Assembly (NCBI RefSeq): GCF_035987325.1
Contig: NZ_CP108488.1
Span: 8,742,001-8,806,000 of the forward strand
DNA: 64,000 bases
Direction of reading: 5' to 3'
DNA from: Streptomyces sp. NBC_01244
Lineage (GTDB): Bacteria > Actinomycetota > Actinomycetes > Streptomycetales > Streptomycetaceae
Part shown: positions 53,729 to 64,000 of the stretch, piece after piece
How positions within the stretch are numbered: the first letter of the stretch is position 1
Layout: each line of letters begins with the position of its first letter
Program-made: the position numbers and the translations under genes
Notes under the pieces: generated by a model
Databases searched by the model: none
Seen by the model: the letters and a program-made list of their open reading frames with translations, nothing else
What the model was told of the DNA's origin: nothing

Positions 53729-55417
53729 ATGTTCCGCTTTCCCCGGCCGCCGCGCAGCCTCGCCGGTCAGCTCTTCGCCATGCAGGTGGTGCTGGTCGCC
53801 GTGGTCGTCGCCGGTTGCGCCGTCTTCGCGTACGCGACCGCCCGCGACCAGGCCGAGGAGGCCGCCCGACGCCAGGCCGGGGCGGTGGCCCGCGCCGTCG
53901 CGGACTCCCCGTCGGTACGGGACGCGGCGCGCGAGGAAGCGCGGGAGGGCGCCCGGGAGCCGGACGCGCAGTCCGTCCCGGAGGCCCTACGGGGAGCCGG
54001 GCGCGGGGCCGAAGCCCCCAGCGGGCCCACCGCGGCCCTGCAGCCCTACGCGGAGCGGGTCCGCGTCGACGCGGGCGTGGACTTCGTGACGATCATGGCT
54101 CCGGACGGACGGCGCTGGACCCATCCCGACCCGATGCGCATCGGCGAACCCTTCCTCGGCAACACCGCCCCCGCCCTGCGGGGCGAGACCTTCAGCGAGA
54201 CCTACACCGGCACCCTCGGCCCTTCCCTCCGCGTGGTCACCCCGATCACCGACGACGGCCGGGTCATCGGCATGGTCGCCGCCGGCATCACCGTCCGCGC
54301 GGTCAGTGCCCGCCTCGCCGAGCGGCTCTCCGCCCTCGCCTGGGTGGCCGGCGGGGCCCTCACCCTGGGCGGGGCGGGAACCTACGTCGTCAATGCCCGG
54401 CTGCGCCGCCACACCCACGGGATGAACGCGGCCGAGCTGAGCCGGATGTACGACTACCACCAGGCCGCCCTGCACGGGGTCCGCGAAGGCCTGCTGATGC
54501 TCGACGGCCGGCGCCGGATCACCCTCGTCAACGACGCGGGCCGCGAACTCCTCGGCCTGCGCGGGGAGATCAAGGGCACCGGCGTCGCCGACCTCGGCCT
54601 GCCCGCCCCGCTCACCGGGGCACTGCTCGCCGACCGGCCCCGGGTGGACGAGGTCCACCTGACCGCGGACCGGGTGCTCGTGCTCAACAGCGCGCCCGTC
54701 GCCGGCGGCGGCCGCCGGGGCACCGTGATCACCCTGCGCGACCACACCGAACTGCTCTCGCTGACCGGGGAATTGGACCAGGAACGCGGATTCACCCGGG
54801 CGCTGCGCGCGCAGGCCCACGAGGCGGCCAACCGGCTGCACACCGTGGTCTCCCTCATCGAACTCGGCCGCAGCCGGGAAGCGGTGGACTTCGCCACCGC
54901 CGAACTGTCCCTCGCCCAGGCGCTGACCGACGAGGTGATCGCCGCCGTCGGCGAGCCCGTGCTCGTCGCCCTGCTGCTCGGCAAGGCCGCGCAGGCCCAC
55001 GAACGGGGGGTCGAGCTGGTCGTCACCCCGGACAGCGGAGCCATCGGCGCCGGGCCCGGCGGTCCGTCCGCCCGGGACCTCGTCACCGTGCTCGGGAACC
55101 TCGTGGACAACGCCGTCGACGCCCTCACCGGCGTGCCCGGCGGGCGGATCTCCGTCACCATCCGCCCCGACGGCCCGGCCGGACCCCACGGGCAGGGGGT
55201 GCTGATCGGCGTGGCCGACAACGGCCCCGGACTTCCCGAGGGCGCGGACGTGTTCCGGCGCGGCTGGTCGGGCAAGGGTGAGGGGCGGGGCCTGGGCCTC
55301 GCACTGGTGCGTCAGGTGGCCCACCGGCACGGCGGCAGCGCGGACGCCGACCAACTGCCGGGCGGCGGCGCACGGTTCACCGTACGGCTGCCGGTGCGCG
55401 GGGAGGCGGACGCATGA
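53729..55417 (+). CDS. CitA/DcuS-type sensor histidine kinase
   Basis: A 562-residue membrane sensor kinase. TM1 (SLAGQLFAMQVVLVAVVVAG) and TM2 (LSALAWVAGGALTLGGAGTY) flank an extracellular PAS-like domain ending GRVIGMVAAGITV. A cytoplasmic PAS domain (LLMLDGRRRITLVNDAGREL), the phospho-acceptor segment RAQAHEAANRLHTVVSLIEL and the ATP domain (NLVDNAVDAL, DNGPGL, GRGLGLALV) follow. Such kinases sense citrate or C4-dicarboxylates. The ATG overlaps no upstream gene; CACACT ends 7 nt before it. The response regulator ATG overlaps its stop. Confidence 0.93.
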   Translation: MFRFPRPPRSLAGQLFAMQVVLVAVVVAGCAVFAYATARDQAEEAARRQAGAVARAVADSPSVRDAAREEAREGAREPDAQSVPEALRGAGRGAEAPSGPTAALQPYAERVRVDAGVDFVTIMAPDGRRWTHPDPMRIGEPFLGNTAPALRGETFSETYTGTLGPSLRVVTPITDDGRVIGMVAAGITVRAVSARLAERLSALAWVAGGALTLGGAGTYVVNARLRRHTHGMNAAELSRMYDYHQAALHGVREGLLMLDGRRRITLVNDAGRELLGLRGEIKGTGVADLGLPAPLTGALLADRPRVDEVHLTADRVLVLNSAPVAGGGRRGTVITLRDHTELLSLTGELDQERGFTRALRAQAHEAANRLHTVVSLIELGRSREAVDFATAELSLAQALTDEVIAAVGEPVLVALLLGKAAQAHERGVELVVTPDSGAIGAGPGGPSARDLVTVLGNLVDNAVDALTGVPGGRISVTIRPDGPAGPHGQGVLIGVADNGPGLPEGADVFRRGWSGKGEGRGLGLALVRQVAHRHGGSADADQLPGGGARFTVRLPVRGEADA

Positions 55418-56133
55418 GCACGCCCGAGGTGCGGGTCCTCGTCGTCGAGGACGATCCGGTGGCCGCCGACGCGCACGCGCTGTACGTCGGGCGCGTGCCG
55501 GGCTTCACCGCCGTGGCGGTCGTCCACTCCCTCGCCGGGGCCACCCGCGTCCTGGAGCGGACCCGGATCGACCTGCTGCTGCTCGACCTGACCCTGCCCG
55601 ACGGCCACGGGCTGCGGTTCGCCCGCGGCCTGCGGGCCGCCGGCCACCCCGCCGACGTGATCGTGGTGACCTCGGCCCGGGACCTGGGGGTCGTCCGCGA
55701 GAGCGTCTCGCTCGGGGTGGTGCAGTACGTACTGAAGCCCTTCGCCTTCCCCACCCTGCGCGAACGGCTCCTGCGCTACGCCGAGTTCCGCGCGACGGCG
55801 GCGGGCGAGGCGGCCGGCCAGGACGATGTGGACCGTGCCATGGCGGCCCTGCGCTCACCCCGGCCGGCCGAACTCCCCAAGGGGATCGGCGGCCCGACCC
55901 TGGACCGGGTCGCCGCGCTGCTGCGGGCCGCCCCCGAGGGGCTGACCGCGGGCGGGACGGCCGAGGCGGCGGGGATCTCCCGGATCACCGCCCGCCGGTA
56001 CCTGGAGCACCTGGTGGACACGGGCCGAGCGGACCGCACCCCCCGGTACGGCCAGGTCGGCCGCCCCGAACTGCACTACCGCTGGCTGGCGGCTCCGGCC
56101 GGGGCCGCGGCCGGCTCGGTGTCGAAGGTGTAG
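55414..56133 (+). CDS. CitB/DcuR-type response regulator
   Basis: A 239-residue response regulator, coupled to the kinase by ATGA overlap. The receiver domain has acidic D13/D14, phosphorylated D58 (LLLLDLTLPDG) and K in YVLKPFAF. The output domain is the CitB-type winged HTH (TAGGTAEAAGISRITARRYL, EHLVDTGRADRTPRYGQVGR). It probably activates dctA when dicarboxylates are present. Its final 58 bp overlap the end of the convergent tyrosinase gene, so the last 19 codons are read on both strands. Confidence 0.92.
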   Translation: MSTPEVRVLVVEDDPVAADAHALYVGRVPGFTAVAVVHSLAGATRVLERTRIDLLLLDLTLPDGHGLRFARGLRAAGHPADVIVVTSARDLGVVRESVSLGVVQYVLKPFAFPTLRERLLRYAEFRATAAGEAAGQDDVDRAMAALRSPRPAELPKGIGGPTLDRVAALLRAAPEGLTAGGTAEAAGISRITARRYLEHLVDTGRADRTPRYGQVGRPELHYRWLAAPAGAAAGSVSKV

Positions 56134-56936
56134 AACTTCCGGTGGTCCAGCATGTCCGCCGGTGTCACGTCGTTCCACGGCCGCATGGTGTCATTGAGGT
56201 CCACGACGTTGGCGGTGCCGGCGGCGGGCAGGTACGCCGACTGCGGGTGCAGCGCCTGCCAGTCGGCCCACAGCTTGTCGATGAAGGCGTGGTGCATCCA
56301 GAACACCGGGTCGTTGGGGGAGACCCCGGTCGCCATCTGGCCGCCCACCCAGACGTGCACCCTGTTGTGCAGGTTGGCTCCGCGCCAGCCCTCCAGGTGG
56401 TTGCGGAAGCCGCCGGAGGAGCTGTTCCAGGGCGCCGCGTCGTAGACCGGCATCGCGAGGACGGAGTCCACCTCGGCCCTGGTGGGCAGCTGGGCCACGC
56501 CGGTGCCGAGCGCGCGCCGCAGGTAGGAGCGCCCGTCCACCCGTACGGCTATCTCCCACTTGCCCGCCGCGTACGCGAACGGTCCGTCGAGCACCTGCCC
56601 GTCCCGGGCCCGTCCGGTGCCGCCGAGGAAGTCGGCGGCCCAGAGCGAGGAGCGGGCGGTCCGGTCGGCCGTCCAGTCCCAGTACGGAAGGGCCACCGCC
56701 GGATCAACCGCCTGCAGCGCCGCCTCGAACTCCAGCAGAAACCGGCGGTGCCAGGGGAGGAAGGAGGGGGAGCGGTGGCCGACGCGGTCGCCCGAGTCGG
56801 TGTCGCTCATGATGAAGCCGTTGTGGGTGGTGACGAAGCGGTCGTAGCGGCCGGTGCGCTTCAGTTCGAGGAGCGCCGCGACGAAGGCGCGCTTCTCCTC
56901 GGAGGTCAGCGAGGCCTGGTTCTTGCGGATGGTCAT
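56076..56936 (-). CDS. melC2: Tyrosinase
   Basis: A 286-residue tyrosinase of the classic MelC2 type ([20 protein letters not shown]). All copper ligands are present: H38, H54, H63 (CuA) and H190, H194, H216 (Cu[25 protein letters not shown]). The C-terminal tail after FYTFDTE ([11 protein letters not shown]) is longer than in most homologues and overlaps the response-regulator gene. It oxidises tyrosine/DOPA for extracellular melanin and is exported with MelC1. ATG overlaps the melC1 stop (ATGA). Confidence 0.95.
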
Positions 56937-57358
56937 CGCATGCCGCCCATCAGGACGAGGGAGGCGCCCTGGAGTTCGCGCACGGCGGCGCGGGCGAGCG
57001 GGAGCGGGCCGGAGAAGGTCTCGTAGTGGTTGACGACGCTGATCCAGCTGCCGTCGGCGTTCCGCATCACGTGCAGTTCGCGGCCGTCTATGAGGACGGT
57101 CGGCTGACCGGGGGACTGATGGCCGCCGTGGTGGCCGCCGTGGTCGCCTCCGCCGCCCGAGGCGGGGACTATTCGGATGCGGCGGCCCTGGTAGACCTCG
57201 TCGACGGTGCCCGCGGGGGTGGCGGGTGCGGCGGGGGTGGCCGGGGTGGCGGGACGGGACCGGGTGACGGCCGCGTGCGCGGTGGCGCCGGCGAGGCCGA
57301 GGACGCTGAGTGCGCCGGCAGTGGTGCCTAAGGCCTGACGGCGGGTGATCTTGTTCAT
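56933..57358 (-). CDS. melC1: Tyrosinase copper chaperone
   Basis: A 141-residue MelC1 protein with a Tat signal ([20 protein letters not shown]). The mature part begins with Pro/Ala/Thr repeats, then [15 protein letters not shown], a [14 protein letters not shown]is/Gly-rich insertion, and the conserved [20 protein letters not shown] core. The insertion is a plausible copper-binding loop and is missing from the other chaperone in this window. It is first in its operon, with weak ribosome-binding sequence. It loads copper into and exports MelC2. Confidence 0.92.
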
Positions 57359-57667: not shown

Positions 57668-59059
57668 ATGGCTCTCCACGAGACGAAGGACCTGCGTGCC
57701 CGCGACGCCGAGACGGACGTGTTCGCGTCCGCCCTCAGCGGCGAGATCCTCCCCAAGTACCGGATGCCCGAAGACCACTCGCCCTCCGAGGTGGTTTACC
57801 AGCTCCTCCACAACGAGCTGCTCCTCGACGGCAACGCCGCCCAGAACCTGGCCACTTTCTGCACCACCTGGTCGGACGACGGGGTCCACCGGCTGATGAA
57901 CGAGTGCCTCGACAAGAACATGATCGACAAGGACGAGTACCCGCAGACGGCCGAGATCGAGGCCCGCTGCGTCAACATCCTGGCCGATCTGTGGAACGCC
58001 CCCGCCGGCACCACCGGCACCGGCTGCTCCACCACCGGATCCAGCGAGGCGGCCATGCTCGGCGGCCTCGCCCTCAAGTGGCGCTGGCGCGAGCGCCGCC
58101 GTGCCGCCGGACTGCCCACCGACAGGCCCAACCTGGTGTGCGGGCCGGTGCAGGTCTGCTGGGAGAAGTTCGCCCGGTACTTCGACGTCGAGCTCCGCCA
58201 GGTCCCGCTGGAGCCCGGCGCCACCGGCCTGCGCCCCGGGCAGCTCGCCGCCCACGTCGACGAGAACACCATCGGCGTCGTCGCCATCCTCGGCGTCACC
58301 TACACCTGCGTCTACGAGCCCGTCGCCGAGATCGCCGCCGAACTCGACCGGATCCAGGCCGAGCACGGCTGGGACGTCCCGATCCACGTGGACGCCGCCA
58401 GCGGCGGCTTCGTGGCCCCCTTCCTCCACCCCGACGTGGTCTGGGACTTCCGGCTGCCGCGCGTGGCCTCCGTCAACACCTCCGGCCACAAATACGGCCT
58501 CGCCCCCCTCGGCGTCGGCTGGATCGTCTGGCGCACCGCCGATCTGCTCCCGGCCGACCTCGTCTTCTCCGTGGACTACCTCGGCGGGGACATGCCCACC
58601 TTCGCCCTCAACTTCTCCCGGCCGGGCGGCGAGATCATCGCCCAGTACTACCTGTTCCTGCGCCTGGGACGGGGCGGCTACCGCCGGGTCCAGCAGGCCT
58701 GCGCCGACACCGCCCAGTACCTGGCCCGCGAGATCGAGACCGTCGGCCCCTTCACCCTGCTCTACGACGGCCAGGGCGCGCTGCCCGCCGTCTCCTACCG
58801 GCTCACCGATCCGCAGGGCGCCGGCTTCACCCTCTACGACCTCTCCGACCGGCTGCGGATGCGCGGCTGGCAGGTGCCCTCGTACCCGCTGCCCGCCGAG
58901 CGCGACGACACGGTCATCCAACGGGTCCTGATCCGGCACGGGGTGACCCGGGACCAGATCGCGCTGCTCGTCTCCGACCTGCGGGGCGCCGTGGAACACC
59001 TGATCGCGCACCCGCAGCCCGTGCCCGCGGCCCCGCCCCGGTCCGGCTTCCACCACTGA
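57668..59059 (+). CDS. gadB: Glutamate decarboxylase
   Basis: A 463-residue PLP enzyme converting glutamate to GABA with proton uptake. The PLP-binding lysine is K275 (SVNTSGHKYGLAPLG); GTTGTGCSTTGSSEAAMLGG holds the phosphate/ring site and HVDAASGGFVAPF the aspartate contacting the pyridine nitrogen. The length equals E. coli GadB. No antiporter gene is adjacent, so it may serve GABA catabolism or acid stress. TATAGT ends 6 nt before the ATG, a leaderless-type promoter. The gene converges with a helicase. Confidence 0.95.
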   Translation: MALHETKDLRARDAETDVFASALSGEILPKYRMPEDHSPSEVVYQLLHNELLLDGNAAQNLATFCTTWSDDGVHRLMNECLDKNMIDKDEYPQTAEIEARCVNILADLWNAPAGTTGTGCSTTGSSEAAMLGGLALKWRWRERRRAAGLPTDRPNLVCGPVQVCWEKFARYFDVELRQVPLEPGATGLRPGQLAAHVDENTIGVVAILGVTYTCVYEPVAEIAAELDRIQAEHGWDVPIHVDAASGGFVAPFLHPDVVWDFRLPRVASVNTSGHKYGLAPLGVGWIVWRTADLLPADLVFSVDYLGGDMPTFALNFSRPGGEIIAQYYLFLRLGRGGYRRVQQACADTAQYLAREIETVGPFTLLYDGQGALPAVSYRLTDPQGAGFTLYDLSDRLRMRGWQVPSYPLPAERDDTVIQRVLIRHGVTRDQIALLVSDLRGAVEHLIAHPQPVPAAPPRSGFHH

Positions 59060-61790: not shown

Positions 61791-63482
61791 TCACATCCGG
61801 GCACCGAAGTTCTGTGTCCACCACGGGCCGCCGGAGCCCTGGTGGATGCCCACGCCGATGTCCTTGAAGGAGCAGTTGAGGATGTTCTCGCGGTGGCCCT
61901 GGCTCTTCATCCAGGAATCCATGACCTGAGCCGCGGTCCGCTGCCCCTTCGCGATGTTCTCCCCGTACGTGGACCAGCGGTACCCGGCGGCGGTGGTCCG
62001 CTTGCCCGGGTCCGCGCCGTCCGGGTTGGTGTGCGAGAAGAAGTCCCGCCGCGCCATGTCGTCGGAGTGGCCCTGGGCGGCCGTACGCAGTTGCGCGTTG
62101 TCCTTGAGCGGCCCGCAGCCGGCCTTCGCGCGCTCGGAGTTGACCAGGGATATCACCTGGGCGGCGGTGCTGCCGCCCGGCGGGGCGGGAGCGGGGCTCT
62201 TCGGCGGGGTGGACTTGGGGCTCGGCTTCGGGGTGGGCGTGGGGGGCGGAGTCGGGCTGGGGGTGGGGCTGGGACGTGGGCTCGGCGAGGCGCTCGCAGA
62301 GGCGGACACCGAGGGGCTCGGGGTGGGGGAGGCCGGCTCCGGGGCCGGCGCGGCCCCCGATTCCGGAGCCACGAGCGCGGCCGCGGGCGCCTCGGGGGAG
62401 GCGGTGCCGGGCCGCGTGCCCAGGTAGGTCAGCCCGCCACCCACGACACAGGCGGCGAGCACCGCGCCGCCGATCACCCGGCGCCGGCCGCGCGTGCGCC
62501 GCTGCTTGCGCAGCGAGGCACGCCCGTCCCCCGGCCCGGCCACCGCGGCGAATTGCTCCTCGCCGTCGGCGGTGGTGCCGGCCCCCGGGCCGGAGAGCCC
62601 GTCCGGGCCGTACGCCGAAGCGGTGGTGGCCGGGCCCGCGGACGTGAAGGCGGACGTGAAGCCGGGCGCGAAGCCGGGCGCGAAGCCGGAGGCCGCGGCC
62701 GCCCGTACACCCGCGAGCAGGGCCGCCGAGACCGGCACCAGCGCCAGCCCGGCCAGCAGTCCTTCGGCCGGGAGCAGGCCGTTCCACAGCCCGCCGCACC
62801 GCAGGCACGCGCGGGCGTGCCGGGCTATTCGCTTGCGCCACAGCGCCGAGGGCAGGCCGTCCCAGCTCGCGACCACCGCCCGCAGGTCCTCGCAGGGCGG
62901 CTGGGCATCCAGTGCCCGCTCCACCACCCGGGCCGCCTCCAGCTGCGCCTTCATCCGCTGCACCCGTACGGCCGTGTGCTGCGCGGACAGCTCCAGCGCC
63001 TGCGCCATCTCGGTGCGCGTCAGCTCCCCGGCGCACTCGAGCCACCACAGGGACAGCAGGGCCCGGTCGTCCGGCTCCAGCCAGCGCGTGGCACGGGCCG
63101 TCTCGCGGCGCTGGCCCTCCAGCTGGAGCCGTACGACGGTCAGGTCCGCGAAGTCGGCGCCGGGATCGGCGAGGTCCCAGGCGGCCTCCAGGCCGCTCTC
63201 GCCGGGGGCGCTCCGGCGGGCCTGCCAGTGGGCGCGTACCCGGTTCATGGCGATCGCCACCAGCCAGGACCGGAAGCTGTGGTCGTCGCGCAGGCCGCCC
63301 AGCCCGTCGAGTGCCCGCAGCATCGTGTCCTGGACCACGTCGTCCACGTCGACGGATCCGTTCAGGGCCCGCCCGACGATGTTGTAGACCAGCGGCAGAT
63401 AGGCGCTGACCAGGTCGTCCTGTGCGCGGGGATCGCCCGCGCGGGCCGCGGCGACCAGCGCTGCCGTGTGCGATGTGCTCAT
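61791..63482 (-). CDS. ECF sigma factor fused to a transmembrane, CAP/SCP-domain extension
   Basis: A 563-residue single-chain protein. Residues 1-85 are sigma-2 (DVDDVVQDTMLRALD, SFRSWLVAIAMNRVRAHW); 130-185 are sigma-4 (LTRTEMAQALELSAQHTAVR). C197 and H222-x3-C226-x2-C229 follow, the zinc motif of anti-sigma factors (RIARHARACLRCGGLW). A hydrophobic stretch (241-259), basic patch (324-335), and a helix (336-354) anchor it. A Pro/Ser/Thr linker (375-435) leads to a CAP/SCP domain (440-563: NSERAKAGCGPL, YGENIAKG, GHRENILNCSF). The sigma, its inhibitor-like part, and an outer domain are in one polypeptide. AGGGA precedes ATG 63482. Confidence 0.92.
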   Translation of the reverse strand: MSTSHTAALVAAARAGDPRAQDDLVSAYLPLVYNIVGRALNGSVDVDDVVQDTMLRALDGLGGLRDDHSFRSWLVAIAMNRVRAHWQARRSAPGESGLEAAWDLADPGADFADLTVVRLQLEGQRRETARATRWLEPDDRALLSLWWLECAGELTRTEMAQALELSAQHTAVRVQRMKAQLEAARVVERALDAQPPCEDLRAVVASWDGLPSALWRKRIARHARACLRCGGLWNGLLPAEGLLAGLALVPVSAALLAGVRAAAASGFAPGFAPGFTSAFTSAGPATTASAYGPDGLSGPGAGTTADGEEQFAAVAGPGDGRASLRKQRRTRGRRRVIGGAVLAACVVGGGLTYLGTRPGTASPEAPAAALVAPESGAAPAPEPASPTPSPSVSASASASPSPRPSPTPSPTPPPTPTPKPSPKSTPPKSPAPAPPGGSTAAQVISLVNSERAKAGCGPLKDNAQLRTAAQGHSDDMARRDFFSHTNPDGADPGKRTTAAGYRWSTYGENIAKGQRTAAQVMDSWMKSQGHRENILNCSFKDIGVGIHQGSGGPWWTQNFGARM

Positions 63483-63558
63483 AGAAAAGTCCCTGTCCGT
63501 ACCGGCGCTCGATGATGCCCAATACATGGGAGACCGTCGAGGGGGACTTTGATAACGC

Positions 63559-64000
63559 TTATCCGCCGAACGGTTTCGCCGATGCTGAATCCGGAGCGCC
63601 ATGCCCCGGTTCCGGGCTTGTTCCCGGCCTTGTTCCCGGCTTTGCTTCCGGCCCCGTTTCCCGGGCCGGGGCGAGCCGGGCGGCCAGGGCGTCGAGATCG
63701 GGCAGGAACCAGATGTGGCGGCCCTCGTTCGATTCCCGTACGAGATCGCGCAGGGCCGAACTCGCCCCCAGATGGTGCGAGAGGTCGCCCAGGACCACCA
63801 GGCGGACCCGGTAGTTCACGAACTTCTGCATGATCGCCCCGGCGAGTCCGCTGCGCAGGTCGAAGAAGCCGGCGTCCAGGCGTTCCACCGGGACGGCGAC
63901 GATGTCGGTCCGGTAGAAGGCGCCGCCGATCAGCTGGTCGAGCGCGTCCTGCTCGGTGGCGACCGGCGGACCGTCGGCGGCGCAGACCAGGACCGGTACG
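63559..64000 (-). CDS. DUF4180 family protein, C-terminal part (5' end outside window)
   Basis: The gene enters from beyond the right edge. The 146 visible residues show the DUF4180 pattern: VPVLVCAADGPPVATEQDAL, DIVAVPVERLDAGFFDLRSG, LAGAIMQKFVNYRVRLVVLG and SALRDLVRESNEGRHIWFLP, all highly conserved. A Pro/Gly/Thr-rich tail with repeated PGTRPGTSPEPG follows. The function of DUF4180 is unknown. It lies upstream of the sigma/CAP gene on the same strand, 76 bp away, and could be cotranscribed. Confidence 0.85.
   Translation of the reverse strand, partial: VPVLVCAADGPPVATEQDALDQLIGGAFYRTDIVAVPVERLDAGFFDLRSGLAGAIMQKFVNYRVRLVVLGDLSHHLGASSALRDLVRESNEGRHIWFLPDLDALAARLAPARETGPEAKPGTRPGTSPEPGHGAPDSASAKPFGG

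What the first reader, a model, noticed from the sequence alone, without database searches (positions are those of the whole stretch)
61791..63482. Sigma factor, anti-sigma-like zinc motif, membrane anchor and CAP domain in one protein
The sequence shows sigma-2 and sigma-4 at the N-terminus, an H-x3-C-x2-C zinc motif like that of anti-sigma factors, a basic patch plus helix, a Pro/Ser/Thr linker and an extracytoplasmic-type CAP/SCP domain. Fused ECF groups with C-terminal zinc/TM extensions are known in Actinobacteria. Whether this CAP-bearing form is described I cannot say. It suggests a membrane-tethered sigma factor released or re-oriented by a signal sensed by CAP. Topology is ambiguous because two hydrophobic stretches exist.
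Basis: partly seen in the sequence, partly recalled or inferred. Interest (0 to 1): 0.72.

Follow-up and report, generated by a model that had tools for sequence, protein, structure and literature searches.

The report
Membrane-tethered sigma factor with CAP sensor
A Streptomyces gene joins in one protein a transcription-starting sigma factor, what looks like its own zinc-binding brake, a membrane anchor and a domain probably held outside the cell, and it belongs to a widespread family in which that outer domain has been exchanged several times while the inner part, and in many members a matching promoter-like sequence, stay the same.

Summary
Window 61791-63482 (minus) encodes one 563-residue protein: ECF sigma-2/sigma-4, zinc site, basic patch and transmembrane helix, Pro/Ser/Thr linker, CAP domain. 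Of 80 Streptomyces relatives read, 80 keep H-x3-C-x2-C and 75 show the CAP GEN motif. The zinc site is a four-ligand set (C197-x24-H222-x3-C226-x2-C229), as in ZAS anti-sigma factors, so sigma and anti-sigma appear fused. Charge bias and the CAP cysteine pair favour one membrane crossing (336-354) with CAP outside.
The module is a family (about 288 of 391 genomes of the order) with interchangeable outer domains: CAP, AbfB, two glycosidase types, ricin, beta-helix, two unassigned. A bipartite promoter-like motif, YGTTATC-N16-GTCTCC, or a close variant precedes 75 of 75 genes examined (window plus 74 orthologs). Of 100 exact sites in 150 genomes, 52 lie just upstream of family members. Of 35 other sites read, 32 precede lyase, PATR or CAP genes, and the class follows the outer domain (CAP genes where the sigma carries CAP).
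The kind (ECF52/53-like fused sigma) is known, and an "r2, CAP" sigma is listed in print. I found no description of the exchange pattern, promoter or matched targets; the main classification papers were not available.

The parts
61791..63482 (-). CDS, 563 aa: ECF sigma - ZAS-like zinc module - TM - P/S/T linker - CAP
   Evidence: 80 relatives
63213..63413 (-). sigma region 2 (residues 24-90)
62907..63074 (-). sigma region 4 (about residues 137-192)
62796..62894 (-). ZAS-like four-ligand zinc motif C197-x24-H222-x3-C226-x2-C229
   Evidence: all four residues in 77 of 77 rows and invariant in the 45-row family alignment; profile match to seven zf-HC2 proteins E 4e-5, probability 42.5%, sigma-4 control E 0.64
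62691..62768 (-). conserved hydrophobic helix after the zinc motif (residues 239-264), read here as part of the anti-sigma module and not a membrane crossing
   Evidence: low model confidence
62478..62510 (-). basic patch (residues 325-335), cytoplasmic side of the membrane anchor
   Evidence: charge bias
62421..62477 (-). transmembrane helix (residues 336-354)
   Evidence: KD 1.93 over the best 19 residues; charge bias 77 of 77 orthologs; low model confidence
62175..62411 (-). Pro/Ser/Thr-rich linker (about residues 358-436)
61794..62165 (-). CAP/SCP domain (residues 440-563) with H484, E508, H530 and C456/C537
63551..63557 (-). putative -35 element CGTTATC
   Evidence: motif in 75 of 75 upstream regions
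63529..63534 (-). putative -10 element GTCTCC, 16 nt after the -35 heptamer
   Evidence: as above; with the -35, the only exact match to the bipartite pattern in the 10.0-Mb genome
63490..63494 (-). AGGGA, likely ribosome-binding site
   Evidence: sequence

Best explanation
It is a one-protein transmembrane signalling device: an ECF sigma factor fused at its C-terminus to its own ZAS-type zinc anti-sigma module and anchored by one transmembrane helix (N inside, C outside) that carries, on a P/S/T stalk through the wall, a CAP domain. Shown by sequence: the domain order, conservation, four conserved would-be zinc ligands, exchange of the outer domain among relatives, and the conserved YGTTATC-N16-GTCTCC element before the gene. 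Inferred: the topology; that at rest the ZAS module holds sigma-2/sigma-4 at the membrane; that an event outside involving CAP leads to cleavage or rearrangement that frees the sigma part; and that free sigma reads that element, raising its own synthesis and, in some species, that of an apparent single-pass CAP protein, while sister sigmas with another outer domain drive secreted lyase and PATR proteins. The ligand and the protease are not known.
For: Single ORF with domains; 80 relatives; C/H/C/C in 77 of 77 rows and invariant in 45; charge bias; CAP C456/C537 in 77 of 77; outer-domain exchange on the tree; motif in 75 of 75 upstream regions, spacer 16 in 73 and 17 in 2; 100 exact sites in 150 genomes against 2 for the reversed control; 52 of 100 lie 45-107 bp before, and on the strand of, a matched family sigma module; sites in 74 of 115 genomes with the family and 2 of 35 without, Fisher p 2e-10, kinship of genomes not corrected; 35 of the 37 29-bp sites elsewhere were read: 14 Alginate_lyase-like, 13 PATR-like, 5 CAP, 3 other; target class follows outer domain, 19 of 21 against 0 of 5 genomes, p 3e-4; two operon-like pairs, CAP gene-CAP sigma in G446 and lyase gene-sigma in G016. 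Precedent: SCO4117 and the IutY fusion as told in PMC8999054 and PMC5826349 (section and passages).
Against: Pfam finds no sigma region 4 and no zf-HC2 here. The ZAS profile match has only 42.5% probability, its single-sequence comparisons are weaker (best E 2e-4), and the ZAS-only model (pLDDT 64) found no PDB chain. In the family 28 of 52 upstream regions do not exceed the 99% shuffled null for the motif, among them 6 of 6 AbfB, the Pel9A and the ricin member and 6 of 7 GH99. Around the four other CAP genes of the window genome the best motif score on either strand is 9.3, against 28.1 before the window gene, so the window's own regulon may be itself alone. Target matching rests on few, related genomes; G014 has a PATR target and only a CAP sigma, and G481 has a lyase target without a matching sigma among those read. 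No protease or ligand is identified.
Confidence: 0.65

Rival explanations
1. The zinc module is a cytoplasmic redox or metal switch like RsrA; the anchor and CAP only place or store the protein and CAP senses nothing.
For: Full C-x24-H-x3-C-x2-C set; the redox ZAS protein RsrA is known in Streptomyces and its kin (start of the abstract of PMC4960319 in a listing).
Against: The outer domain is conserved and keeps CAP cavity residues, is exchanged for other extracytoplasmic domains, and target genes follow the outer domain.
Confidence: 0.15
2. The YGTTATC-N16-GTCTCC element is the site of another regulator, or the promoter of another sigma factor, that controls this gene family.
For: 28 of 52 family upstream regions do not exceed the 99% null; 41 of 115 genomes with the family have no exact site; no promoter assay exists.
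Against: Fixed 16-17 nt spacing and position; tied to the family across genomes; found before members with different outer domains but the same sigma module.
Confidence: 0.15
3. Both hydrophobic stretches cross the membrane, so CAP faces the cytoplasm.
For: Best 19-residue KD is 1.6 or more in 76 of 77 rows for the first and 63 of 77 for the second; 20 of 80 orthologs have no mid-stretch proline in the first; two hydrophobic stretches are also visible in the ECF52-like protein L188.
Against: Strong basic patch just before the second stretch, mid-stretch proline in 47 of 47 family members, conserved cysteine pair and P/S/T stalk, homology of the C-terminal half to apparent single-pass CAP proteins.
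Confidence: 0.1
4. The sigma part is degenerate and the protein is only a membrane CAP protein.
For: No Pfam region 4 hit.
Against: Region 4 is the most conserved part (mean 0.93); family-linked promoter-like element.
Confidence: 0.04

Closest known systems
ECF52 sigma factors (SCO4117 of S. coelicolor)
   Same: Sigma - zinc finger - transmembrane - Pro-rich stalk - extracytoplasmic domain in one protein; proposed release by proteolysis (PMC5826349 passages, PMC8999054 section 3.5 and passages)
   Different: Outer domain is a carbohydrate-binding one, not CAP. The window genome has its own ECF52-like protein (L188, 676 aa, Sigma70_r2, zf-HC2, NPCBM) and the window sigma part is 27% identical to it over 197 residues.
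ECF53 sigma factors
   Same: Fused anti-sigma and transmembrane part (PMC8999054), with glycosidase and carbohydrate-binding domains reported for some ECF52/53 (PMC10766802, one passage); the family found here carries such domains, so the window protein may fall in or near ECF53
   Different: No CAP member is described in the passages read; group assignment could not be tested, since the classification papers are not held.
S. venezuelae RS02075 ('r2, CAP')
   Same: Sigma region 2 and CAP in one protein (Table 3 of PMC11256431, passage); perhaps an ortholog, not checked by sequence
   Different: Only a table row, reported up in the RS24280 deletion; no mechanism, topology, zinc site or promoter in the passages read.
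IutY of Pseudomonas putida (ECF243)
   Same: Sigma fused to its membrane anti-sigma and freed by proteolysis (PMC8999054, section 3.5)
   Different: An iron-starvation system that answers to aerobactin (same source); no CAP is mentioned there.
RsiV-SigV
   Same: An anti-sigma factor acts as receptor for an outside protein and is destroyed by proteolysis (starts of abstracts in a listing)
   Different: Sigma and anti-sigma are two proteins, not one.

Membership tests
ECF sigma factor | sigma region 2 | tested here: met
   Pfam E 3e-14
ECF sigma factor | sigma region 4 and no region 3 | tested here: met
   TIGR02937 20-182, CnrH 9-183, SigW 3-188 in the model; Pfam finds neither r3 nor r4 up to E 1
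ZAS anti-sigma module | four zinc ligands, C/H upstream of H-x3-C-x2-C | tested here: met
   that the fourth ligand lies some 25 residues upstream in ZAS proteins is recalled; zinc binding itself not tested
ZAS anti-sigma module | sequence kinship with anti-sigma factors | tested here: inconclusive
   hhalign against seven zf-HC2 proteins E 4.2e-5, probability 42.5%; sigma-4 control E 0.64
ZAS anti-sigma module | ZAS fold | tested here: inconclusive
   model pLDDT 64, Foldseek gave no chain
ZAS anti-sigma module | inhibits sigma | not testable with these tools
   needs an assay
CAP/SCP superfamily | CAP fold | tested here: met
CAP/SCP superfamily | cavity His/Glu residues | tested here: met
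   H484, E508, H530 in 77 of 77; H472 in 69 of 77; which residues line the cavity is recalled
ECF52 | carbohydrate-binding (NPCBM-type) outer domain | tested here: not met
   CAP instead; NPCBM found in the window genome's L188
ECF53 | group profile score | not testable with these tools
   group models not available; classification papers not held
ECF53 | fused zinc/TM part, and glycosidase or carbohydrate-binding outer domains in the family | tested here: met
   this description comes from passages of PMC8999054 and PMC10766802 and is not a full definition

The most novel reading that the evidence does not exclude
A modular 'plug-in' sigma system: one conserved sigma-anti-sigma-anchor chassis and one shared promoter code, onto which outer domains are swapped, and each sigma controls secreted or surface proteins of the same functional kind as its own outer domain (CAP sigma to CAP protein), so the outer domain acts as a membrane-held copy that reports on the same wall or polysaccharide substrate. 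CAP would then be a true sensor domain for transcription.
Probability: 0.35. Interest if true: 0.8.

Novelty: new variant of a known kind. Interest (0 to 1): 0.62.

Why it matters
CAP domains are common and their molecular role in bacteria is unclear (recalled); here one is wired to transcription, so its ligand could be sought by a reporter screen. The family turns a set of poorly understood fused sigma factors into a testable system with a predicted promoter, predicted targets and natural domain swaps, and it offers a chassis in which an outer domain could be exchanged to make sensors in harmless Streptomyces.

Tried and rejected
Two separate genes or a frameshift: rejected by 80 relatives. 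A defence role: no PADLOC hit. A conserved operon: within the flanks held (up to 8 kb, less at contig ends) neighbours are not widely kept (of 80 loci: DUF4180 gene 5, helicase 15, decarboxylase 23), so the gene probably stands alone. A GAAC-type ECF -35 before the window gene: present in the window but not shared (10 of 75 upstreams match any such pattern). My first pattern for the bipartite motif was wrong and found 17 of 75; the corrected one found 75 of 75. L157 was first labelled CAP-A and is CAP-B; the tree count was redone (12 changes, not 13). The ZAS-only fold search gave no chain; this is no evidence against the fold. In the 50 rows shown for the whole model no separate anti-sigma chain appeared, but that list tests mainly residues 4-97 and 436-562. 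Of the four other CAP genes of the window genome none has a strong motif in its 3.3-kb locus.

Rows dropped or chosen: and the counts left out L070, L071, L073, L078 (window + 76 rows); the upstream sets left out L038, L040, L057, L070, L073, L078 (window + 74); one search used 77 orthologs of 500 aa or more; the Pfam family scan used 45 of 56 sequences (10 short or incomplete ones and the duplicate L175 left out); the 20 genomes were picked by me for many copies, other genera or weak scores, so domain proportions are no census; three fragment rows were left out; 2 of 37 29-bp sites outside sigma genes were not fetched, nor the 11 sites of 27-28 bp; G453 was left out of the Fisher test, and in G481 one family member was not read, so its 'without' is not certain. 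Of the 306 genomes, 18 have only weak matches (E 1e-13 to 7e-11) that may be other ECF sigma factors. Genomes are related, so the p values are not strict.

Literature: in searches (top rows of listings) I saw no text on a CAP-bearing sigma factor's mechanism, promoter or targets; PMC11256431 lists one 'r2, CAP' protein. Passages of PMC6295645 gave nothing on it. The main classification papers (Casas-Pastor 2021, Huang 2015; DOIs recalled) are not held, so prior description of the CAP form there cannot be excluded.

Full report

CONSERVATION. The search for related loci found 214 relatives in genome contigs and kept 80, of which 79 are titled Streptomyces. H-x3-C-x2-C is in 80 of 80 and GEN[ILV] of CAP in 75 of 80. 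In 77 aligned rows (window + 76) the mean commonest-residue frequency is 0.87 in sigma-2, 0.93 in sigma-4, 0.86 in the zinc part, 0.83 in the anchor and 0.86 in CAP, against 0.62 in the loop and 0.56 in the linker. C456, C537, H484, E508 and H530 are in 77 of 77; H472 in 69.

A COMPLETE ZINC SITE. The finding named three ligands. C197 makes a fourth: C197-x24-H222-x3-C226-x2-C229, in 77 of 77 rows, invariant in the alignment of 45 diverse family members, and matched as a pattern with that spacing in 52 of 56 family sequences and 36 of 37 further ones. That arrangement is the ZAS one (recalled). A profile of this part from 57 family members matches a set of seven zf-HC2 proteins of the same genome (one of them the ECF52-like L188) at E 4e-5 but only 42.5% probability; a sigma-4 control gave 0.64, and comparisons with the seven singly were weaker, best E 2e-4. 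The ZAS fold alone could not be confirmed. The fused anti-sigma reading is therefore likely, not proven.

TOPOLOGY. Two stretches are hydrophobic. Before the second (336-354) lies RKQRRTRGRRR; K+R on the N-side exceeds the C-side in 77 of 77 orthologs and in 37 of 47 family members including the window, equal in 9 and lower in 1. The most hydrophobic 19 residues of the first stretch hold a proline near the middle in 47 of 47 family members, but in only 60 of 80 close orthologs; in the model the helix starts ten residues after the last zinc ligand. I read it as part of the anti-sigma module; this is the weaker part of the topology argument. CAP is then outside, which fits its cysteine pair and the P/S/T stalk. 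The C-terminal half also resembles apparent single-pass CAP proteins (42% identity over 274 aligned positions, low-complexity filter off, to the L208 gene product).

A FAMILY WITH EXCHANGED OUTER DOMAINS. The sigma-zinc part (alignment A1) matches in 306 of 391 genomes of the order at E 1e-10, in 8 of 10 genera; 18 of these have only weak matches, so about 288 hold the family. Among 20 genomes that I picked, one has nine matches. The window genome has one member (next matches E 6e-6). Pfam on 45 members: CAP 14, Glyco_hydro_cc 7, GH99 7, AbfB 6, ricin 1, Pel9A 1; nine have no assigned outer domain, seven of them labelled by me as a shared YGxTVD type and two as a long type that may be a propeller. 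On a 58-row tree of the sigma-zinc part, the nine labels (two CAP types apart) need 12 changes where 8 is the least possible; with the CAP types merged 10, where 7 is the least. AbfB sits in two places, and GH99, GHcc and the long type are each one clade. L150 (ricin) and L157 (CAP), from one contig of one genome, are sisters with full support. So the outer domain has been exchanged several times.

A PROMOTER-LIKE ELEMENT. In 75 of 75 upstream regions (window and 74 orthologs) GTTATC or a close variant is followed after 16 nt (73) or 17 nt (2) by GTCTCC or a close variant, mostly about 77 nt before the start. A matrix trained on these exceeds the 99% shuffled null in 24 of 52 family upstream regions (more distant CAP members, Glyco_hydro_cc 6 of 7, the long type 4 of 4, YGxTVD 3 of 6) but in 0 of 6 AbfB and 1 of 7 GH99. 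In the 10.0-Mb window genome the exact pattern occurs once, before this gene at 63529-63557. In 150 genomes of the genus it occurs 100 times in 76 genomes, the reversed control twice. 52 of the 100 lie 45-107 bp before, and on the strand of, a matched family sigma module, all 29 bp long; 52 of 105 such modules in these genomes have it. It occurs in 74 of 115 genomes with the family and 2 of 35 without (p 2e-10; related genomes, so not a strict probability). I take it as the promoter read by this family. That is inference.

TARGETS. Of 37 29-bp sites not before a sigma module, 35 were read: 14 precede Alginate_lyase-like and 13 another apparently secreted protein of some 700 residues (11 of them with a weak PATR hit), 5 precede CAP proteins, 3 other genes. 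In the five CAP-target genomes all seven family members found at E 1e-15 were read and none has the YGxTVD/FHVASGG domain; of 21 lyase/PATR genomes 19 have such a sigma (p 3e-4). In G446 the site precedes a CAP gene that ends some 60 bp before the matched CAP sigma module; in G016 a lyase gene ends some 45 bp before a sigma with the other domain. In G175 the site precedes a CAP gene divergent from a CAP sigma. Exceptions: G014 (PATR target, CAP sigma only) and G481 (lyase target; AbfB sigma and one member not read). One more CAP-sigma genome, G454, has its other site before a papain-family gene. For the window's own genome no second target was found.

MECHANISM. Shown: architecture, conserved would-be zinc ligands, exchange, element. 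Inferred: topology, resting inhibition by the zinc module at the membrane, an outside event through CAP, release by cleavage or rearrangement, self-amplification through its own promoter. Precedents are IutY and SCO4117 (PMC8999054 section 3.5, PMC5826349 passages).

KNOWN AND NEW. ECF48, ECF52 and ECF53 are described as fused sigma/anti-sigma/TM proteins (PMC8999054), some ECF52/53 with glycosidase and carbohydrate-binding domains (PMC10766802, one passage). The window genome has a separate ECF52-like protein with NPCBM (L188). One 'r2, CAP' sigma is listed in Table 3 of PMC11256431. I found no text on the mechanism, promoter or targets of a CAP sigma (searches; classification papers not held). 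Verdict: a new variant of a known kind, with a family-level logic that looks new.

CHANGE AFTER CHECKING.

Noticed in passing
L188 (window genome, around G000:C1:4565261): ECF52-like protein, 676 aa by open frame, with Sigma70_r2, zf-HC2, two hydrophobic stretches and NPCBM.
   Followed up: partly
L192 (window genome, around G000:C1:5479491): Another sigma-like protein with an H-x3-C-x2-C motif and a BACON_2 domain; its Sigma70_r2 hit is below the Pfam cut-off.
   Followed up: no
L231-L253, 19 of the 37 sigma loci L231-L267: An extracytoplasmic domain (FHVASGGGRRMDD, QQMWQNEYFY), without Pfam hit where scanned (L252), carried by sigma factors whose genomes hold motif-linked lyase and PATR genes.
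   Followed up: partly
L200 and 12 other loci of L196-L230: Apparently secreted protein of some 700 residues behind the motif, with weak PATR hits in 11 of 13; function unknown.
   Followed up: partly
G013 contig C47 (L150, L157): Sister sigma genes 39 kb apart, one with a ricin-type and one with a CAP outer domain.
   Followed up: partly
window 56076-57358: Tyrosinase with MelC1 cofactor gene, next to a response regulator (55414-56133) and a pyridoxal-dependent decarboxylase (57668-59059).
   Followed up: no
window 63559-63888: DUF4180 gene upstream on the same strand, found in only 5 of 80 ortholog loci.
   Followed up: no
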